In this document: positions 36,905 to 52,783 of the stretch, one piece after another
Position numbering within the stretch: the first letter of the stretch is position 1
How the letters are laid out: the number at the start of each line of letters is the position of its first letter
Source: a virus
DNA: 52,803 bases
IMG/VR virus record: IMGVR_UViG_3300008114_000045
Span: 1-52,803 of that record
Reading direction: 5' to 3' (one strand)
Notes under the pieces: model-generated
The model's input: only the letters and a program-made list of their open reading frames with translations
Database searches by the model: none
What the model was told of the DNA's origin: nothing
Position numbers and translations under genes: made by a program

Positions 36905-37126
36905 ATGAAATACGAAGACTTAATAGAAACAGTTTCAGAAATAATCAATAATGAAAAAATTAATAAAAATGGGTTAATTATTACTTATGTTTTAGACGAA
37001 GAAAAACATAATAAAATGAATGAACATCTTTATTATCTGTCTAACCCTAATGGAACTGATTATGAAAAAAACAATGAGTTTGAAGTTGAAATAGATGGAC
37101 TAATTGTTAAATTTATTAAAAAATAA
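36905..37126 (+). CDS. Small acidic hypothetical protein
   Basis: 73 residues starting one base after the previous stop. Alternating helices and strands (GLIITYVLDEEK, FEVEIDGLIVKFI). No known motif. Confidence 0.6.
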   Translation: MKYEDLIETVSEIINNEKINKNGLIITYVLDEEKHNKMNEHLYYLSNPNGTDYEKNNEFEVEIDGLIVKFIKK

Positions 37127-37127
37127 T

Positions 37128-37157
37128 TTGTTACGTAATTATCTTTTTGTACATTTG
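37128..37157 (+). promoter_or_regulatory. Host-type promoter for rnhB
   Basis: TTG at 37128-37130, 19-base spacer, TACATTTG at 37150-37157; ATG 14 bases on. Confidence 0.6.
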
Positions 37158-37171
37158 TAAAAAAAAGACAA

Positions 37172-42212: not shown

Positions 42213-43235
42213 ATGAGTAAAAGAGATTATTACGAAGTATTAGGTGTTAAAAAAGGTGCTAGTGCTGATGAAATTAAAAAAGCGTATAGAAAACTAGCAA
42301 AAGAACATCACCCAGACAAAGGCGGTGACGAACAAAGATTCAAAGAGATATCAGAAGCATACGAAACATTGTCAGATAGCAGCAAAAAGGCTAATTATGA
42401 CCAATTTGGTCATTCTAGTGGTAGACAAGGTTTCGACCCATTCGGTGGATTTAGAAATCCGTTTGGTGGAAGAAACCCATTTGGTGGGTTTGACCAACCT
42501 AGATATGGTTCAAATATTTCGTTAGTCGTTAAACTAACGTTAGAAGATATTTTTAATGGTGTTAATAAGAGCTATAAATACACTAGAAAAGCCAAATGTG
42601 GTACGTGTGATGGTCATGGTGGTGAAAACACTGTAGATTGTCACGTTTGTGGTGGTTCTGGTCAAATGGTTCACGTTATGAAGACACCTATGGGTATAAT
42701 TCAGCAAATGACTGCTTGTAATCATTGTTCTGGCACTGGTAAAACATACACAAAAGAATGTGGGAAGTGTAAAGGAAATGGTGTTGTTGATAAAGAAGAA
42801 ATGGTTGAAGTTGAAGTTCCATCTGGTGTTATTGATGGTATGTCATTTGTTATGGAAGGTAAAGGTCATTGTGTTAAAAATGGTGAGGAAGGTGATTTAA
42901 TAATAAAGATTTTAGAATTACCACATAAATTATTCACTAGAAACGGTAAAGATTTAAAATTAACGTTAAAAGTACCTTTTCCAACAATGGTTTTAGGTGG
43001 TAAGATGGAAATACCTACAATTGAAGGTAACAACATTAGAATAACTATCCCAGAACATAGTGAAGTAGGACAAACGTTAAGAATTCCATTCAAAGGTATT
43101 AAAGTGTATGGTGATGATGGTAGAGGTGATATTTTTGTTAACCTATCTGTTGACATACCTAAAGAGATTGATGATGAAACAAAATCTGTTATCATTGATT
43201 TAAAAGAAAAATTACTTGCAACACAAAATTCTTAA
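42213..43235 (+). CDS. dnaJ: DnaJ-type co-chaperone
   Basis: 340 residues, a full type I DnaJ: J domain with HPD (33-35), Gly/Phe-rich linker (about 65-95), four CxxCxGxG zinc motifs ([32 protein letters not shown]) and the C-terminal substrate domains. It would recruit host DnaK. No phage DnaK in the window. Complete phage DnaJ proteins are uncommon. With ClpP, SlyD and tmRNA it forms a quality-control set. Confidence 0.95.
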
Positions 43236-43758: not shown

Positions 43759-44066
43759 TGAGTAGAGAAGAAGTAGAAGAACTATTGGCTGAGTCAAACC
43801 CAGAAGCGTTATTCATGGATGGGTTTGACGATGCTATAATAGGTATAGCTGAAAGACCTAATTTTGGTCCTATAGTAGCTTACGATGAAGAAAAAATAAT
43901 TGAGATTCTATTCCATCAAATGGAAGCATCACCAGAAGATTTAGTTGATAGAACCAAAGATGAAGTTTGTTTAGAAATGGCTTTAGAATACTATTACTAC
44001 AACGTAAAATCAACATGGATGGGTGAAAACACACCAATTATTATAACGACAAAATTTTATGAATAA
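43758..44066 (+). CDS. Conserved-looking small phage protein
   Basis: 102 residues, acidic. The FMDGFDDAIIGIAERPNFGP segment, then YDEEKIIEILF, is a pattern I recall from many phage hypothetical proteins. Function unknown. Start overlaps the previous stop by one base and its end overlaps clpP by 8. Confidence 0.65.
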   Translation: MSREEVEELLAESNPEALFMDGFDDAIIGIAERPNFGPIVAYDEEKIIEILFHQMEASPEDLVDRTKDEVCLEMALEYYYYNVKSTWMGENTPIIITTKFYE

Positions 44067-44784
44067 TATGAATTTAACTAATGAATTTAGAGATTATGCT
44101 ATTAAGCATATGGGTGTTTCATCTTTAGAGTTTCACCAATGGGAACAAATGCAAGAAAAGCTTTATGGTTCTCAAGCGTCATTAATGGTGCCATCAGCAT
44201 CATTAACGCCTTACATTCTTGAAGAAAGAGAATTAAGAGCAACACAAATGGATATCTTTTCAAGAATGATGATGGATAGAATCATTTGGTTAGCTGGCCC
44301 AGTTAACGACAGAATGAGCACAGTTGTACAAGCACAACTTATGTTTTTGGATAACTTAGAAACAAAAGATATTACTTTACATGTCGATTCTCCAGGTGGT
44401 TCAGTAAAATCTGGTTTATCAATCGTTGACGTAATGGATTATATCACATCTGATTGCGTAACAATTAACACTGGTATGGCTGCAAGTATGGGAAGTATCT
44501 TATTGGGTGCTGGCACAAAAGGTAAACGTTATACATTACGTTTCAGTAGAGTAATGCTACACCAAGTTTCGACTGGAGCTCAAGGTAACATCCAAGACAT
44601 TAGACGTTCAATTGCTGAAGGTGAAAAGTATAATGACATTTTATTTGGTTTGTTAGGTCAATATACTGATAAAGACCCAAAACAAGTAATGGAAGATGCA
44701 AGTCGTGATTTATGGTTAAATGCTGATGAAGCTTTAGCTTATGGAATCGTTGATAACATTATTACAGCTAAAAAGAAAAAATAA
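44059..44784 (+). CDS. clpP: ClpP-like serine protease
   Basis: 241 residues. The ClpP triad is visible: Ser in GMAASMGSILLG, His in VMLHQVSTG, Asp in EDASRDLWL. HVDSPGGSVKSGLSI marks the oxyanion region. The N-terminal 50 residues are longer than in bacterial ClpP. No Clp ATPase in the window, so it may pair with a host unfoldase or act elsewhere, such as in head maturation. An alternative ATG lies 9 bases in. Confidence 0.9.
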   Translation: MNNMNLTNEFRDYAIKHMGVSSLEFHQWEQMQEKLYGSQASLMVPSASLTPYILEERELRATQMDIFSRMMMDRIIWLAGPVNDRMSTVVQAQLMFLDNLETKDITLHVDSPGGSVKSGLSIVDVMDYITSDCVTINTGMAASMGSILLGAGTKGKRYTLRFSRVMLHQVSTGAQGNIQDIRRSIAEGEKYNDILFGLLGQYTDKDPKQVMEDASRDLWLNADEALAYGIVDNIITAKKKK

Positions 44785-44796
44785 TTGCAAAATTAC

Positions 44797-44827
44797 TTGC
44801 ATTATTTAAAAAATGTTTGTACATTTG
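44797..44827 (+). promoter_or_regulatory. Host-type promoter for tmRNA unit
   Basis: TTG at 44797-44799, 20-base spacer, TACATTTG at 44820-44827. A leader hairpin GTGGGTTT / AAACCCAC (44846-44868) follows, then a small ORF and the tmRNA. Confidence 0.6.
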
Positions 44828-44870
44828 TAATAAGAAAATAAATAAGTGGGTTTTTTAACAGAAACCCACA

Positions 44871-45041: not shown

Positions 45042-45401
45042 GGGGTATTTAAGGTATTGACTGGGTATAGTCGTAGGTAGTAAGCATGTAGTGCTAGATT
45101 GGAAGCACTTTAAACTGTCTATTAGAACAAGAATTGACAACGATTTAATCGTATCAGAAAATTTCCTTGATGAAGCGACATTCGTTTCTAACGGAGAGCT
45201 TGCAGTAGCCTAATATTGCATATGGTAGTAACCTACCGATGGTGGTAATCCACTAAGATAATGGTAATCCATCTGGTGTGAAGCTTAAATTACACGGTAA
45301 AAAGAGGTAGCGAAATTTCGGATAGTTTGAAAACTATGTCCTAAACATGTAGAAAGCATTGAAGAATATTCAACACACGGGTTCGATTCCCGTATACTCC
45401 A
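45042..45401 (+). ncRNA. ssrA: tmRNA (transfer-messenger RNA), phage-encoded
   Basis: 360 bases. GGGGTAT (45042-45048) pairs with ATACTCC (45394-45400) as a 7-bp acceptor stem containing the G3-U70 wobble needed for alanine charging. T arm ACGGG-TTCGATT-CCCGT (45377-45393). An internal frame ends at TAA 45211-45213 and finishes ...NGELAVA, a typical small hydrophobic degradation tag; counted from GAC at 45136 the tag has 25 codons, but the resume point is not certain. Three hairpins with TAAC/TAAT loops follow. CCA is not encoded. It rescues stalled ribosomes and tags the unfinished protein. Confidence 0.93.
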
Positions 45402-45450
45402 CTCTTAACAGATTCATTCTCAAACAAATATCCGTGAGTAATGAAATTAT

Positions 45451-48445: not shown

Positions 48446-50065
48446 ATGAAACAGTTAATTAAAAAATTATTTAAAGAATCTATAAAAAATATAAAAAATG
48501 ATAAATTAATAATTGAAAGGCAAAAAATTGTTAATTTAAATAAATTATTTTTAATATTGGAAAAAGAAATCAAAGTTGGTGATAATTTAACTAAAAAATT
48601 AAATATCATTAACACACCTTTATCTAAAAAATTATTAGCGTTTTTAAATAGTGATAAAATAAAAGATGACGCTAATGTCGAATATGTTGATTATGACAAA
48701 AAAAATGAAAAATTAATCACTTTAGGATATACTGATATTAATGGTAATACTAAAGAAAGATTGTTTAAGATTAATAAACTTCTCAATTATCTAGGTAGTA
48801 ACATAAAAGATATTAAAGACTATGAAATAGAAGACCTTATTGGTCATCTTAAAACAGCTGATACATCACAATTAAAAATGGTTGAAGGTGATGATATTCT
48901 AAAAGCATATCACTGTGGTAATTATGAAGATGGTGAAACTATGGGTTCATGTATGAGATTTAGTAGAGCGCAAGAATATCTTAAAATTTATACTGATAAC
49001 CCTAATGAAGTTAAATGTCTTGTATTATTAAATCCAGAAACAAAAAAAGTTAGAGGTAGAGCGCTTATTTGGCATATGGATAACGACCAGTACTTTATGG
49101 ATAGGATTTATACAACAAATAAAGAATTTAACACATTCTTCAACAATTATGCTGAAGAACATGGTTTTAGTAATAGAGCTAATTCGACAGTAACGCTTGA
49201 GAATGGTGGTGAATATGACACATACCCATTTATGGATACATTTGAGTATTATAATCCAGAAACTAGCACATTAGCGACTAGTGGAGAACAAGGTTGGATT
49301 CGATTACAAGACTCTCATGGTGGTCATTCAGAGGCTGGGGTTTATATTGAATATGGTGACCATGAAGGTGAGACTGTAGATGAAGATGAAGCGTTTTATT
49401 TATCATATAGAACACCAAATGGGTATGTAGAAGGTTACGCACACCAAGATGATATAGTATCAATAGATGGTGGTGTATACTTAATTGATGACTGTATTAA
49501 AACATATGACCATGAATGGATATATAAATATGATGATGATTCAGTACACGTAGAATTAACCTATGGTAGATACGAAGGCGAATATGCTAAATTAGATGAT
49601 ACCATAGAATTAGAACCAAATTACTATGGTGAAAATCAATATATAACAACTGATGACGACTATGTAACGTTAGATGACGACATTTATGAAATACCATATG
49701 CTTTTAGTGATGATACTGTAGAAACATATGATGAAAAAACAATATTAAAATCTGACGCTGTTGAATTATACAGAGCACATTATGGTGAGGCAATGTTTGC
49801 ACACCCAAATGACGCAACAAAAGTAAATACGAATGATTACGGTGACGTATGGGTGTTGGATACTGATTTAGATGAGTTCGAAGAAAAGGAAAGAGAACGA
49901 GAAGAAAGGGATAAAAACATAGATTTAGAAAATTTGGCACAAAACCTTAAAAATGGTCTTATCACACAAAGCGAATACGATGAATTTGTTAGAAGAAAAT
50001 CAAAACATAATGTTACTGAGAATAAAAAATTAATAAAAAAATTATTAAAGAATAAATTTGCATAA
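48446..50065 (+). CDS. Large acidic virion-type protein with targeting-like leader
   Basis: 539 residues. N-terminus MKQLIKKLFKESIKN is the clearest example of the basic leader shared by several genes here. Residues about 150-270 form a folded domain with AYHCGNYEDGETMGSCMRFS and a RALIW-RIYTT core that I recall from hypothetical proteins of other phages. Then Asp/Tyr-rich beta repeats (YVTLDDDIYEIPYAF type). C-terminus LIKKLLKNKFA echoes the leader. Catalytic role unknown; the conserved GSCM and HC could be an active site. Confidence 0.6.
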   Translation: MKQLIKKLFKESIKNIKNDKLIIERQKIVNLNKLFLILEKEIKVGDNLTKKLNIINTPLSKKLLAFLNSDKIKDDANVEYVDYDKKNEKLITLGYTDINGNTKERLFKINKLLNYLGSNIKDIKDYEIEDLIGHLKTADTSQLKMVEGDDILKAYHCGNYEDGETMGSCMRFSRAQEYLKIYTDNPNEVKCLVLLNPETKKVRGRALIWHMDNDQYFMDRIYTTNKEFNTFFNNYAEEHGFSNRANSTVTLENGGEYDTYPFMDTFEYYNPETSTLATSGEQGWIRLQDSHGGHSEAGVYIEYGDHEGETVDEDEAFYLSYRTPNGYVEGYAHQDDIVSIDGGVYLIDDCIKTYDHEWIYKYDDDSVHVELTYGRYEGEYAKLDDTIELEPNYYGENQYITTDDDYVTLDDDIYEIPYAFSDDTVETYDEKTILKSDAVELYRAHYGEAMFAHPNDATKVNTNDYGDVWVLDTDLDEFEEKEREREERDKNIDLENLAQNLKNGLITQSEYDEFVRRKSKHNVTENKKLIKKLLKNKFA

Positions 50066-50088
50066 TTAAAAAATCTTTTGTACATTTG
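50058..50088 (+). promoter_or_regulatory. Host-type promoter for suppressor tRNA
   Basis: TTG at 50058-50060, 20-base spacer, TACATTTG at 50081-50088. The tRNA begins 13 bases on. Confidence 0.65.
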
Positions 50089-50101
50089 TACTATAAGATT
50101 T

Positions 50102-50172
50102 GGTCTTATGATGTAACGGCAGCGTAACGGTCTCTAAAACCGATAGTGAGGGTTCGATTCCCTCTAAGACCA
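50102..50172 (+). tRNA. Amber suppressor tRNA, anticodon CTA
   Basis: 71 bases. Acceptor GGTCTTA/TAAGACC with discriminator A; short D stem ATG/CGT with GG in the loop; anticodon stem ACGGT/ACCGA with a 7-base loop CTCTAAA, giving anticodon CTA (50134-50136) after the invariant T33; T arm GAGGG-TTCGATT-CCCTC. It should read UAG. The outermost anticodon pair is an A-A mismatch. Overall layout is like Bacteroidetes tRNA-Gln, so Gln is the likely charge, but this is not proven. CCA not encoded. Own host-type promoter; PTH2 gene with in-frame TAG follows. Confidence 0.9.
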
Positions 50173-50205
50173 CAAATAATGTTTACTTTGGCATTATTAT
50201 TGATA

Positions 50206-50213
50206 TATTTATT
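50206..50213 (+). promoter_or_regulatory. Late-type motif TATTTATT for PTH2 gene
   Basis: 11 bases before the ATG at 50225. It suggests PTH2 is expressed late, after the suppressor tRNA has built up. Confidence 0.4.
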
Positions 50214-50224
50214 AAAAAAAAGTT

Positions 50225-50575
50225 ATGAAATAGGTTAACGAAAAATTAAGAGTTGTCACAAGACGCGACTTATCATTACCGACACAAGCGGTACAATCGG
50301 CACATGCTGCCATAGATTTCCAACACGCTCATCCTATAGAAGCGACAGAATGGCAATCAAAATCAAATTATCTGGCATTATTGACAGTCGCTAACGAAGA
50401 AGAATTAGTTAGACTATCAGAGAAAGCTGATTCTAGAGGAATCAAGTACACAATATTTAGAGAGCCAAACATCAACAATGAAATAACAGCAATAGCATTT
50501 GAACCTTCTGATTCTAGCAGAAGACTAACTAGTTCTTTTCCATTATTGGGAAGGGAGATAAATAACAACGTTTAA
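50225..50575 (+). CDS. PTH2-type peptidyl-tRNA hydrolase with in-frame TAG at codon 3
   Basis: Reads ATG AAA TAG then an open frame to TAA. After the TAG comes VNEKLRVVTRRDLSLPTQAV, then QSAHAAIDFQHAHP, and YLALLTVANEEEL, KYTIFREP, EITAIAFEPS: a complete PTH2-like domain of about 116 residues. No ATG, GTG or TTG lies between the TAG and the conserved core; the first is a TTG 50 codons in. So the intact enzyme needs TAG read-through, or initiation at a rare codon. The enzyme frees tRNA from aborted peptides. The early part uses more G/C-ending codons than its neighbours. Confidence 0.8.
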
Positions 50576-51652: not shown

Positions 51653-52783
51653 ATGGAAAAGAGAATTATATTTGATATGCCAATACCAAAAGACATTTTA
51701 CAAATAAAAGATGTTTTTAAGCAAAATGGTTTTAACCTATATGTTGTAGGTGGTGCAGTGCGTGATGCGTTGTTAGGTAAAACACCTAAAGATTACGATT
51801 TGGCAACCGATGCTATCCCAGACCAAGTGGAAGACATAATGGCTAAAGGTGGTTTTAGAACTTTACCAACTGGTAAAGCATTTGGTGTTATCAACGTCTT
51901 TACTGATATGGGTGAATACGAAATCGCAACTTTTAGGGAAGACTTATCTAGCGGTAGAAGACCAGATGGTGTTAGTTTTACAGATATAGTAGGTGACGTT
52001 AAAAGACGTGACTTAACAATCAACGCATTATTTTACGATATAGACACGTCAGAAGTTGTTGATTTGGTTGATGGTATAGAAGACCTTAAAAACAGTGTTG
52101 TAAGGACTGTAGGTGCAGCTGAAGATAGATTTGGTGAAGATAGATTACGTATATTAAGAGCAATTAGATTTGCTGGTAGATTTGGTAGTGAATTAGACCC
52201 ATCAGTTGACGCTGCATTGCAAAAAGATGCTAGTTTGGAAGGTATATCTGGTGAAAGAATCAGAGATGAGTTTTTGAAAGGTATCAAATCAGCAAAATCT
52301 GTAAAATCGTTTTTAAAAATGATTGACAAATACAATTTATTTGATTGGGTTTTTAAAGATGTTAATGTTAATAAAAATTTCATTGAAGATAATGATATAA
52401 TTATTGTTTTAGCAATGTTGTTAAAGAATAATAAAGTTGATTTATTAACAAAACAATTGAACAAATTAAAATACTCAATTGATGAAATAAGAGCTATTAC
52501 ATTTTTGATTAGTCTATTGAATTTGTCGATTGATACAGCTGTAACGCTTAAAAAAGCTGAAAAGACATCTGGTGTAACAGCAGAACAAATAACTAGATTT
52601 GCTCAATTAAGTGGTATTGATGTAAAGATTATAGATACATTTTTATTATTTAAATTAACGGTTAATGGTTCAGACCTAATGACAAAGATGGGGTTAAAAC
52701 AAGGACCAGAATTAGGTAAAGAAATACAAAGACTAGAAACTGATAATTTTAAAAAACTTTATCTAGATATATTTATTTTTTGA
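51653..52783 (+). CDS. cca: CCA tRNA nucleotidyltransferase
   Basis: 376 residues. Class II poly(A) polymerase/CCA fold: VVGGAVRDALLG, metal motif DYDLAT, FREDLSSGRR, VKRRDLTINALFYD and the tRNA-binding LRAIRFAGRFG. It adds CCA to tRNA 3' ends; the two tRNAs and the tmRNA here all lack an encoded CCA. Slightly shorter at the C-terminus than bacterial enzymes. Stop TGA. Only 20 bases of AT-rich DNA follow in the window. Confidence 0.95.
   Translation: MEKRIIFDMPIPKDILQIKDVFKQNGFNLYVVGGAVRDALLGKTPKDYDLATDAIPDQVEDIMAKGGFRTLPTGKAFGVINVFTDMGEYEIATFREDLSSGRRPDGVSFTDIVGDVKRRDLTINALFYDIDTSEVVDLVDGIEDLKNSVVRTVGAAEDRFGEDRLRILRAIRFAGRFGSELDPSVDAALQKDASLEGISGERIRDEFLKGIKSAKSVKSFLKMIDKYNLFDWVFKDVNVNKNFIEDNDIIIVLAMLLKNNKVDLLTKQLNKLKYSIDEIRAITFLISLLNLSIDTAVTLKKAEKTSGVTAEQITRFAQLSGIDVKIIDTFLLFKLTVNGSDLMTKMGLKQGPELGKEIQRLETDNFKKLYLDIFIF

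What the first reader, a model, noticed from the sequence alone, without database searches (positions are those of the whole stretch)
50058..50575. Amber suppressor tRNA beside a peptidyl-tRNA hydrolase gene gated by an in-frame TAG
The tRNA has a clear CTA anticodon. 53 bases after it, the PTH2 gene reads ATG AAA TAG and then a full domain. No standard start codon lies between the TAG and the conserved core. So full-length enzyme would be made only when the suppressor is active. The tRNA has a host-type promoter and PTH2 a late-type motif, so the tRNA would come first. This could be a built-in switch: suppressor activity turns on an enzyme that deals with peptidyl-tRNA drop-off. I do not know of a described case of this pairing.
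Basis: partly seen in the sequence, partly recalled or inferred. Interest (0 to 1): 0.95.

Follow-up and report, generated by a model that had tools for sequence, protein, structure and literature searches.

The report
Phage enzyme gene locked by amber
Many large bacteria-infecting viruses begin their peptidyl-tRNA hydrolase gene with a stop codon and usually carry, often close by, a tRNA able to read that stop, which looks like a natural switch in which the virus's own tRNA unlocks the enzyme.

Summary
The window has a CTA-anticodon tRNA (50102-50173) and, 51 nt on, a PTH2 gene reading ATG AAA TAG and then a complete PTH2 fold; the next in-frame start codon lies 49 codons past the TAG, inside the fold. 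TAG is an ordinary stop elsewhere (5 of 60 window genes), so the code is not reassigned. The new evidence is conservation: of 90 distinct PTH2s with a readable N-terminus, 74 have a start codon, 0-6 further codons, then TAG; none has TAA or TGA in that place. Identity to the window runs from 99% to about 30%, and cultured phages of Tenacibaculum, Pectobacterium, Cronobacter, Serratia, Salmonella, Acinetobacter and Mycobacterium are included. A CTA tRNA was confirmed for 65 of the 74, a tRNA-like match for 3. Best reading: PTH2 is made only by suppressor readthrough, so its level reports charged CUA-tRNA against RF1. Charging, readthrough and the sensing role are inferred. Against: 16 PTH2s lack the TAG, six of 15 searched still have a CTA tRNA, and two huge phages scanned whole have the TAG but no such tRNA.

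The parts
50102..50173 (+). suppressor tRNA gene, anticodon CTA, 4-bp anticodon stem (top pair A.A), CCA not encoded
   Evidence: ARAGORN, Rfam tRNA 60.1 bits, RNA fold, stem check
50225..50575 (+). PTH2-type peptidyl-tRNA hydrolase gene, read through the in-frame TAG (116 aa)
   Evidence: translation with TAG read as a residue; Pfam PF01981 E 1.9e-9; PDB profile match 1rzw E 3.3e-8; AlphaFold pLDDT 93.8; Foldseek to PTH2 structures
50231..50233 (+). in-frame TAG, codon 3, the gate; the next base is a purine (G)
   Evidence: sequence; TAG at this place in 74 of 90 distinct homologues; +4 purine in 74 of the 75 rows with a TAG
50057..50088 (+). Bacteroidetes-type promoter-like site (TTTG-N20-TACATTTG) before the tRNA; weak evidence
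   Evidence: 8 in window, 4.1 expected by chance; a longer surrounding stretch resembles 37109-37159 and 44776-44835; the consensus itself is recalled
51653..52783 (+). CCA-adding tRNA nucleotidyltransferase gene; neighbour, could finish a tRNA whose gene lacks CCA (role inferred)
   Evidence: Pfam PolyA_pol E 2.6e-34, PolyA_pol_RNAbd, tRNA_NucTran2_2
45042..45402 (+). tmRNA gene with its own tag peptide: ribosome-rescue neighbourhood of the pair
   Evidence: ARAGORN, Rfam tmRNA 61.1 bits

Best explanation
This is a suppressor-gated gene. Ribosomes start at the ATG, read 0-6 more codons (one, AAA, in the window) and meet UAG. If release factor 1 wins, a 1-7 residue peptide is released and no PTH2 is made. 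If the phage's own charged CUA-tRNA wins, the full enzyme is made. PTH2 output therefore measures charged CUA-tRNA against RF1 at UAG codons. PTH2 frees tRNAs from peptidyl-tRNA that has dropped off ribosomes, so the phage makes its peptidyl-tRNA recycler only after its tRNA set is expressed and charged, and makes more when UAG termination is weak. Shown here: the anatomy, the intact fold behind the TAG, conservation of start + TAG over large divergence, absence of TAA/TGA at the site, and association with a CTA tRNA whose body varies. Inferred: charging, readthrough at this codon, hydrolase activity and the sensing role.
For: 74 of 90 distinct PTH2s with a readable N-terminus have a start codon, then TAG at codon 2 (5), 3 (38), 4 (24), 5 (6) or 8 (1); 73 of the 74 start with ATG, always in frame though spacing varies. 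No row has TAA or TGA between a start and the core. 70 of the 74 have no start codon between the TAG and the third codon of the matched core (exceptions L095, L121, L125, L132). The base after TAG is a purine in 74 of the 75 rows with a TAG, against 47 of 110 TAG stops of ORFs in six phages. ARAGORN finds a CTA tRNA in the locus or record of 65 of 74 TAG-bearing rows, against 6 of 15 TAG-less rows searched (Fisher p 0.0002, not corrected for kinship, and the TAG-less records were searched by pattern, not whole). Six of eight records scanned whole with ARAGORN have exactly one CTA tRNA, roughly 0.05-4 kb from PTH2. Myrna and Phabba have clearly different CTA tRNA bodies at the same place with the anticodon kept. 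Strand 1 of the fold starts about five residues after the TAG.
Against: No expression data. 16 tree rows lack the TAG; L109, L114 and L117 still have a CTA tRNA beside PTH2 and L123, L133 and L135 one elsewhere in the record, so the tRNA has other uses or the gate is dispensable. LR745206 (634 kb) and LR756502 (642 kb), sister rows, have the TAG but no tRNA with a stop anticodon among 59 and 46 ARAGORN calls. In the five mycobacteriophages read, a GTG follows the TAG directly, so initiation after the TAG is possible; L095 has an ATG there. The +4 purine may follow from the conserved Ile/Val codon after the TAG. TAG is used less as a stop than its share of stop triplets in five of six phages, but TGA is too in all six, so that is no specific support. 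What charges the tRNA is unknown; no synthetase was searched.
Confidence: 0.77

Rival explanations
1. UAG is the start codon: the CUA tRNA acts as an initiator and translation begins at the TAG.
For: A CUA initiator can start at UAG in engineered E. coli (recalled). The TAG stands right where the domain begins.
Against: 73 of 74 leaders keep an in-frame ATG (the other a GTG) at variable spacing with no stop between. SD-like motifs were seen in 20 of 75 rows, 14 of them 5-7 nt before the ATG.
Confidence: 0.04
2. The phage genome is broadly recoded (TAG as an amino acid, code 15) and PTH2 is just one of many genes with TAG.
For: Such phages exist (PMC13037316 and PMC7162821, passages seen; PMC9523058, search listing only). 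The PTH2 of the 735-kb phage has a second in-frame TAG.
Against: In the window, reading TAG as sense gave no merged neighbouring genes in the ORF lists compared, and 5 of 60 genes end with TAG. TAG ends 3-24% of ORFs of at least 100 aa in six phages.
Confidence: 0.05
3. Readthrough needs no phage tRNA: the TAG is a leaky stop read by near-cognate host tRNAs, giving a low constant level of PTH2. The tRNA neighbourhood reflects phage tRNA arrays only.
For: PTH2 and tRNA arrays co-occur in cluster C mycobacteriophages (PMC5966550, passages seen). Two huge phages scanned whole have the TAG and no stop-anticodon tRNA; four fragments of 10-30 kb have none either.
Against: TAG rather than TAA/TGA is kept at this site; 65 of 74 have a CTA tRNA; in six whole records the single CTA tRNA lies within about 4 kb of PTH2.
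Confidence: 0.1
4. The codon inserts a special residue (for instance pyrrolysine) needed by the enzyme.
For: Dedicated UAG decoding of one enzyme is known for pyrrolysine (recalled).
Against: The stretch before the core varies in length. TAG-less homologues such as L104, L106 and L112 start one or two codons before the core, so no residue is needed there. No synthetase search was made.
Confidence: 0.02
5. Negative feedback: PTH2 removes acylated or peptidyl CUA-tRNA, so it limits suppression that would otherwise extend proteins past UAG stops, in the manner of prfB autoregulation. This is a refinement of the main reading and shares its probability.
For: The gated product acts on tRNAs. PTH2 and a suppressor tRNA are neighbours even in some TAG-less loci. 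Some phages have an RF1-like gene near PTH2 with its own UAG frameshift-like site.
Against: No evidence that PTH2 prefers this tRNA.
Confidence: 0.3

Closest known systems
Engineered suppressor-tRNA feedforward 'leak dampener' (PMC7969014, abstract and outline seen)
   Same: Same logic: an amber codon in a gene and a suppressor tRNA that must be present before the protein is made.
   Different: Man-made in E. coli; here natural, conserved among phages, and the gated protein is a tRNA-acting enzyme by family.
prfB (RF2) autoregulation by in-frame UGA and +1 frameshift (PMC12421855, passages seen)
   Same: A stop codon in a gene of the termination/recycling machinery, used as a sensor of its own decoding.
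   Different: UAG instead of UGA, tRNA readthrough instead of frameshift, PTH2 instead of RF2. That survey found no TAG in the prfB motif in 8,164 genomes.
Phage stop-codon recoding with suppressor tRNAs (code 15; PMC13037316, PMC7162821, passages seen; Borges 2022 recalled, not held)
   Same: A phage CUA tRNA reads UAG.
   Different: There TAG is used inside many genes of a recoded genome; here TAG remains an ordinary stop and one conserved early TAG stands out.
Jumbo-phage XacN1 suppressor tRNAs (PMC5852040, passages seen)
   Same: CUA tRNAs plus a gene named peptidyl-tRNA hydrolase in a jumbo phage; its authors read through 18 amber stops and found no target.
   Different: The XacN1 PTH2-like domain that I read is fused to an upstream part and has no TAG. 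In the TAG-bearing phages the leader of 1-7 codons is too short to be called as an ORF.
Lambda bar minigene (PMC8012679, passage seen)
   Same: A dipeptide-encoding start-codon-stop, toxic through peptidyl-tRNA in cells deficient in Pth.
   Different: bar ends in UAA and is not the leader of a hydrolase gene (recalled); resemblance only.

Membership tests
PTH2 (Pfam PF01981) | score over the curated cut-off | tested here: met
   38.1 bits against 23
PTH2 (Pfam PF01981) | PTH2 fold | tested here: met
   model pLDDT 93.8; best-ranked chains of 2zv3, 3erj, 1q7s, 1xty with TM 0.75-0.81 on the query
PTH2 equivalog (TIGR00283 arch_pth2; NF003314 Pth2) | curated equivalog cut-offs | tested here: not met
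   29.5 bits against 82 and 32 against 126: a divergent phage branch
PTH2 (Pfam PF01981) | peptidyl-tRNA hydrolase activity | not testable with these tools
   a His and neighbouring residues are invariant in the 22 sequences of A1; no assay
amber suppressor tRNA | tRNA fold with CTA anticodon | tested here: met
amber suppressor tRNA | charged, and reads UAG in the cell | not testable with these tools
   needs experiment
code 15 phage (genome-wide TAG reassignment) | TAG inside many genes and not used as a stop | tested here: not met
   5 of 60 window genes end in TAG; gene frames are not merged under TAG=Q
prfB-type autoregulation | release factor gene with CTT TGA C and +1 shift | tested here: not met
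   PTH2 is not a release factor and its frame does not shift
pyrrolysine system | PylRS and Pyl biosynthesis genes | not tested
   no search made; the 'tRNA-Pyl' label comes from the anticodon only

The most novel reading that the evidence does not exclude
An old, widespread natural genetic switch: large phages of hosts in at least three bacterial phyla keep one amber codon at the start of their PTH2 gene and, as a rule, a CUA suppressor tRNA to open it, so that the UAG codon acts as a sensor of suppressor tRNA against RF1. In some of them a short RF1-like gene a few kb away carries its own prfB-like CTT TAG C site between two reading frames, so both arms of one circuit would be set by UAG decoding.
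Probability: 0.57. Interest if true: 0.95.

Novelty: new variant of a known kind. Interest (0 to 1): 0.92.

Why it matters
Why phages that use the standard code carry amber suppressor tRNAs is an open question; the XacN1 authors looked for targets and found none. A conserved target gives a direct, cheap test in phages already in culture. It would be a natural counterpart of the engineered suppressor-tRNA switch, and it links tRNA charging, RF1 activity and peptidyl-tRNA recycling in one circuit. It also explains why PTH2 is truncated or missing in several phage annotations.

Tried and rejected
Genome-wide code change: rejected for the window. Initiation after the TAG at a non-standard codon: rejected as a general rule, because the next codon is ATT (39 of 75), GTA (10), GTT (9), or one of ATA, AAT, ATC, GTG, CTT, GGC, ATG, GGA, AGA, ACT, AAC. 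UAG as start: disfavoured by the kept in-frame ATG. Assembly error: rejected by independent contigs and cultured phages. Assigning the amino acid from tRNA similarity: the nearest other phage tRNA scored at most 0.66 on a scale where 1 is identity, mostly under 0.6, with no consistent isotype, so left open. Other TAG-gated genes: a loose scan gave many hits in larger or GC-rich phages, for TAA and TGA too, so it is not informative there. No ribozyme or other RNA family besides two tRNAs and the tmRNA reached Rfam's gathering score in the window. Unpinned anticodon stem: 14 of 48 classifiable CTA tRNAs (25 of 73 dropped for inner mismatches) against 20 of 172 other phage tRNAs (29 of 201 dropped), p 0.006; kinship not corrected, so only a hint; passages of PMC13092985 say that such stems can raise UAG readthrough. 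Whether the finding is in print: searches of an open-access library showed no paper describing it in the listings and passages that I read; subscription papers and preprints are not held.

Limits of the counts: one search kept 80 of 131 relatives, so 51 were never read. Of 91 distinct bodies L062 (truncated) was dropped, and L092 (short) also from the tree. A first tally of CTA tRNAs by pattern (70 of 74 against 9 of 15, Fisher) was too generous: on checking with ARAGORN several pattern hits are tRNA-Arg (anticodon CCT or TCT) or no tRNA. The figures given here (65 confirmed, 3 tRNA-like, 6 none; 6 of 15 TAG-less) replace it. The three tRNA-like matches (L059, L065, L078) show acceptor, anticodon and T arms in the fold but no normal D arm and reach neither ARAGORN nor Rfam's threshold. 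A looser pattern matched no more often than its control and says nothing. In one search the IkeLoa and Arash distances were typed roughly (1.25 and 1.06 kb); the distances are about 0.6 and 1.3 kb.
Full report
WHAT IS THERE. The window is one whole IMG/VR virus record of 52,803 bases. At 50102-50173 lies a CTA-anticodon tRNA (Rfam 60.1 bits) and at 50225-50575 a gene reading ATG AAA TAG followed by 113 codons. It is a PTH2 peptidyl-tRNA hydrolase: Pfam E 1.9e-9, PDB profile match to AF2095 E 3.3e-8, an AlphaFold model of pLDDT 93.8 for the part that begins at the second codon after the TAG, with its first strand at residues 4-9, and Foldseek matches to solved PTH2s with TM up to 0.81. The first in-frame start codon after the TAG is 49 codons downstream, so no downstream start could give an intact enzyme. 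TAG ends 5 of 60 window genes and gene frames do not merge when TAG is read as sense, so the code is not generally changed.

CONSERVATION. Close relatives were fetched with the window protein (33 loci) and distant ones with a profile built only from sequence after the TAG (A1; one search kept 80 of 131; one search gave two bacterial MAG contigs). The search patterns lie in the core, so the TAG was not selected for. Named phages came from tblastn searches of phage records, of which I read 22 (one region twice for XacN1). Of 106 rows tabulated, 91 were distinct over the first 90 residues; one (L062) is truncated. Of the remaining 90, 74 have a start codon (73 ATG, 1 GTG) with TAG at codon 2 (5), 3 (38), 4 (24), 5 (6) or 8 (1). 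RaK2 has a TAG but no start before it and an ATG after it, and is counted as not gated. No row has TAA or TGA between a start and the core. 70 of the 74 have no start codon up to the third codon of the matched core (exceptions L095 with ATG; L121 and L125, mycobacteriophages with GTG; L132, ME3, with a GTG inside the core). On a tree of 89 proteins (73 with, 16 without) the trait needs at least 7 changes, against 15.0 in shuffles (0 of 500 as low; strongly supported branches force at least 3). The root is arbitrary and many forks are unresolved, so a single origin is neither shown nor excluded.

CULTURED CARRIERS. Tenacibaculum pT24 (ATG AAA TAG), Pectobacterium CBB and Cronobacter GAP32 (ATG GCA CAA TAG), Serratia BF (ATG ACG CAC TAG), Salmonella Arash (ATG CTG TAG), Acinetobacter ME3 (ATG ACT TAG), Mycobacterium IkeLoa, LinStu and HyRo (ATG TAG GTG) and Myrna and Phabba (GTG TAG GTG); also five uncultured huge-phage records of 462-735 kb, LR756500, LR756501, LR745206, LR756511 and LR756502. 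In pT24, CBB and Arash the annotated gene starts inside the domain, and in BF none is annotated over it.

THE tRNA. ARAGORN finds a CTA tRNA in 59 of the 74 loci, all on the PTH2 strand (most other genes there are too, so this is weak), 29 upstream (24 within 300 nt) and 30 downstream. Of the 15 others, six have one elsewhere in the record: CBB, L082, L088, L124, GAP32 and BF. Three (L059, L065, L078) have a CTA-bearing tRNA-like fold 0.05-1.2 kb upstream without a normal D arm, which neither ARAGORN nor Rfam accepts. Six have none: four fragments of 10-30 kb, and LR745206 and LR756502, whose 59 and 46 ARAGORN tRNAs include no stop anticodon. Of 15 TAG-less rows searched, six have a CTA tRNA: L109, L114 and L117 beside PTH2, Lak-A1, XacN1 and RAS14 elsewhere. 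Fisher p 0.0002 for 65 of 74 against 6 of 15, uncorrected for kinship and with a weaker search of the TAG-less records. Of eight records scanned whole, six have exactly one CTA tRNA and two none. The 73 distinct CTA tRNAs then held, a few of them from TAG-less loci or second copies, have no common isotype. Myrna and Phabba carry clearly different bodies at the same place, with the same anticodon. This suggests selection on codon and anticodon rather than on the inserted residue. TAG-less homologues begin one or two codons before the core (e.g. L104, L106, L112), so a residue at the TAG is not needed by the fold.

CONTEXT OF THE CODON. The base after TAG is a purine in 74 of the 75 rows with TAG (51 A, 23 G, 1 C), against 47 of 110 for TAG stops of ORFs of at least 100 aa in six phages. 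A purine there is held to favour suppression (recalled), and +4U is held to reduce read-through (PMC5289835, abstract). The bias may also come from the conserved Ile/Val codon. TAG is below its share of stop triplets as a stop in five of six phages and in the window, but TGA is below its share in all of these too, so TAG is not specially avoided.

HOW IT MOST LIKELY WORKS. Ribosomes start at ATG, meet UAG within a few codons and either release the short peptide or accept the phage's CUA tRNA. PTH2 appears only in the second case. Pth enzymes recycle peptidyl-tRNA; the start-codon-stop gene lambda bar is toxic without Pth (PMC8012679, passage), so the leader resembles a source of the enzyme's own substrate. 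That is a resemblance, not a test. The window keeps a tmRNA (45042-45402) and a CCA-adding enzyme gene (51653-52783) in the same region, which fits a translation-rescue neighbourhood. Steps shown: anatomy, fold, conservation, association. Steps inferred: charging, readthrough, activity, sensing.

A RELATED SITE. Ten of 18 records and ten of 19 further records carry a gene with an RF-1 domain; the window and its 126-kb relative do not. In nine of the first ten it lies about 1.4-3.6 kb from PTH2, in the tenth (IkeLoa) some 24 kb away. The L005 copy matches RF1 models better than RF2 models (100 against 65 bits), with a PPT motif and GGQ. In 7 of 17 copies read for the junction (L007, L008, L012, L021, L035, L245, L250) the upstream frame ends at CTT TAG C and the domain continues in the +1 frame, which is the prfB slip site with UAG. 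The other ten differ: L005, L010 and L248 have an in-frame stop there, L241 and L242 are full-length and RF2-like, the rest show neither clearly. A survey of bacterial prfB found no TAG in that motif in 8,164 genomes, and no conserved frameshift in prfA (PMC12421855, passages).

AGAINST THE READING. 16 tree rows lack the TAG; six of 15 searched still have a CTA tRNA, and L104, L105, L112 and two Lak phages have a TTA-anticodon tRNA near PTH2. Two huge phages have the TAG and no stop-reading tRNA found. The mycobacteriophage copies can start at GTG after the TAG. No expression data exist here.

WHAT IS KNOWN. Phage PTH2s are described in jumbo phages (PMC7824862, passages) and in cluster C mycobacteriophage tRNA arrays (PMC5966550, passages). 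The XacN1 authors sought and did not find targets of their CUA tRNAs (PMC5852040, passages). An engineered circuit uses the same logic (PMC7969014, abstract). No listing or passage that I read, in the ten searches named in Tried and rejected, describes an amber codon in phage PTH2.

VERDICT. Observation confirmed; interpretation supported in its core and unsupported on timing. A natural, conserved, suppressor-gated gene is a new variant of stop-codon recoding and is testable now in phages in culture.

Noticed in passing
L007, L008, L012, L021, L035, L245, L250 (upstream of the RF-1 domain): RF1-like gene whose two halves lie in different frames, joined at CTT TAG C: a prfB-like +1 frameshift site with UAG instead of UGA. 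Seen in 7 of 17 copies read.
   Followed up: partly
L005, L010, L021 in the same RF1-like gene: In-frame TGA where relatives have TGC (Cys), and in L005 and L010 a TGA near the junction that the continuing frame would have to pass.
   Followed up: no
L104 3607-3697, L105 1355-1430, L112 3676-3766, L123 2245-2317, L126 2353-2425: tRNAs with a TTA anticodon (ochre suppressors) near TAG-less PTH2 genes, including Prevotella Lak phages; no TAA lies between a start and the core.
   Followed up: partly
L120 (LR745206) and L139 (LR756502): Sister huge phages with the PTH2 TAG but no tRNA with a stop anticodon in the whole record by ARAGORN.
   Followed up: partly
L059 near 2921, L065 near 2910, L078 near 1816: CTA-bearing tRNA-like folds with acceptor, anticodon and T arms but no normal D arm, upstream of PTH2; not accepted by ARAGORN or Rfam.
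   Followed up: partly
L119 (735-kb phage LR756501), PTH2 frame: A second in-frame TAG inside the PTH2 domain, so this phage may use TAG more widely.
   Followed up: no
L121 (Myrna) 2466-2537 and L253 (Phabba) 1665-1735: Syntenic CTA tRNAs with clearly different bodies but the same anticodon; Phabba's is annotated as tRNA-Arg(tct) and the HyRo copy (L254 1814-1887) is not annotated.
   Followed up: yes
window 45042-45402: Phage-encoded tmRNA with a 20-residue tag, near ClpP (44059-44784) and DnaJ (42213-43235) genes.
   Followed up: no
window 37109-37159, 44776-44835, 50036-50098: Similar stretches (77-78% identity) that each span a gene end and the following gap; the copies at 37 kb and 50 kb contain a TTTG-N19/20-TACATTTG promoter-like element.
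   Followed up: partly
L116 (Phycisphaerales MAG contig) 2219: A PTH2 with ATG TAG and a CTA tRNA just upstream in a contig binned as a bacterium, possibly a phage contig.
   Followed up: no
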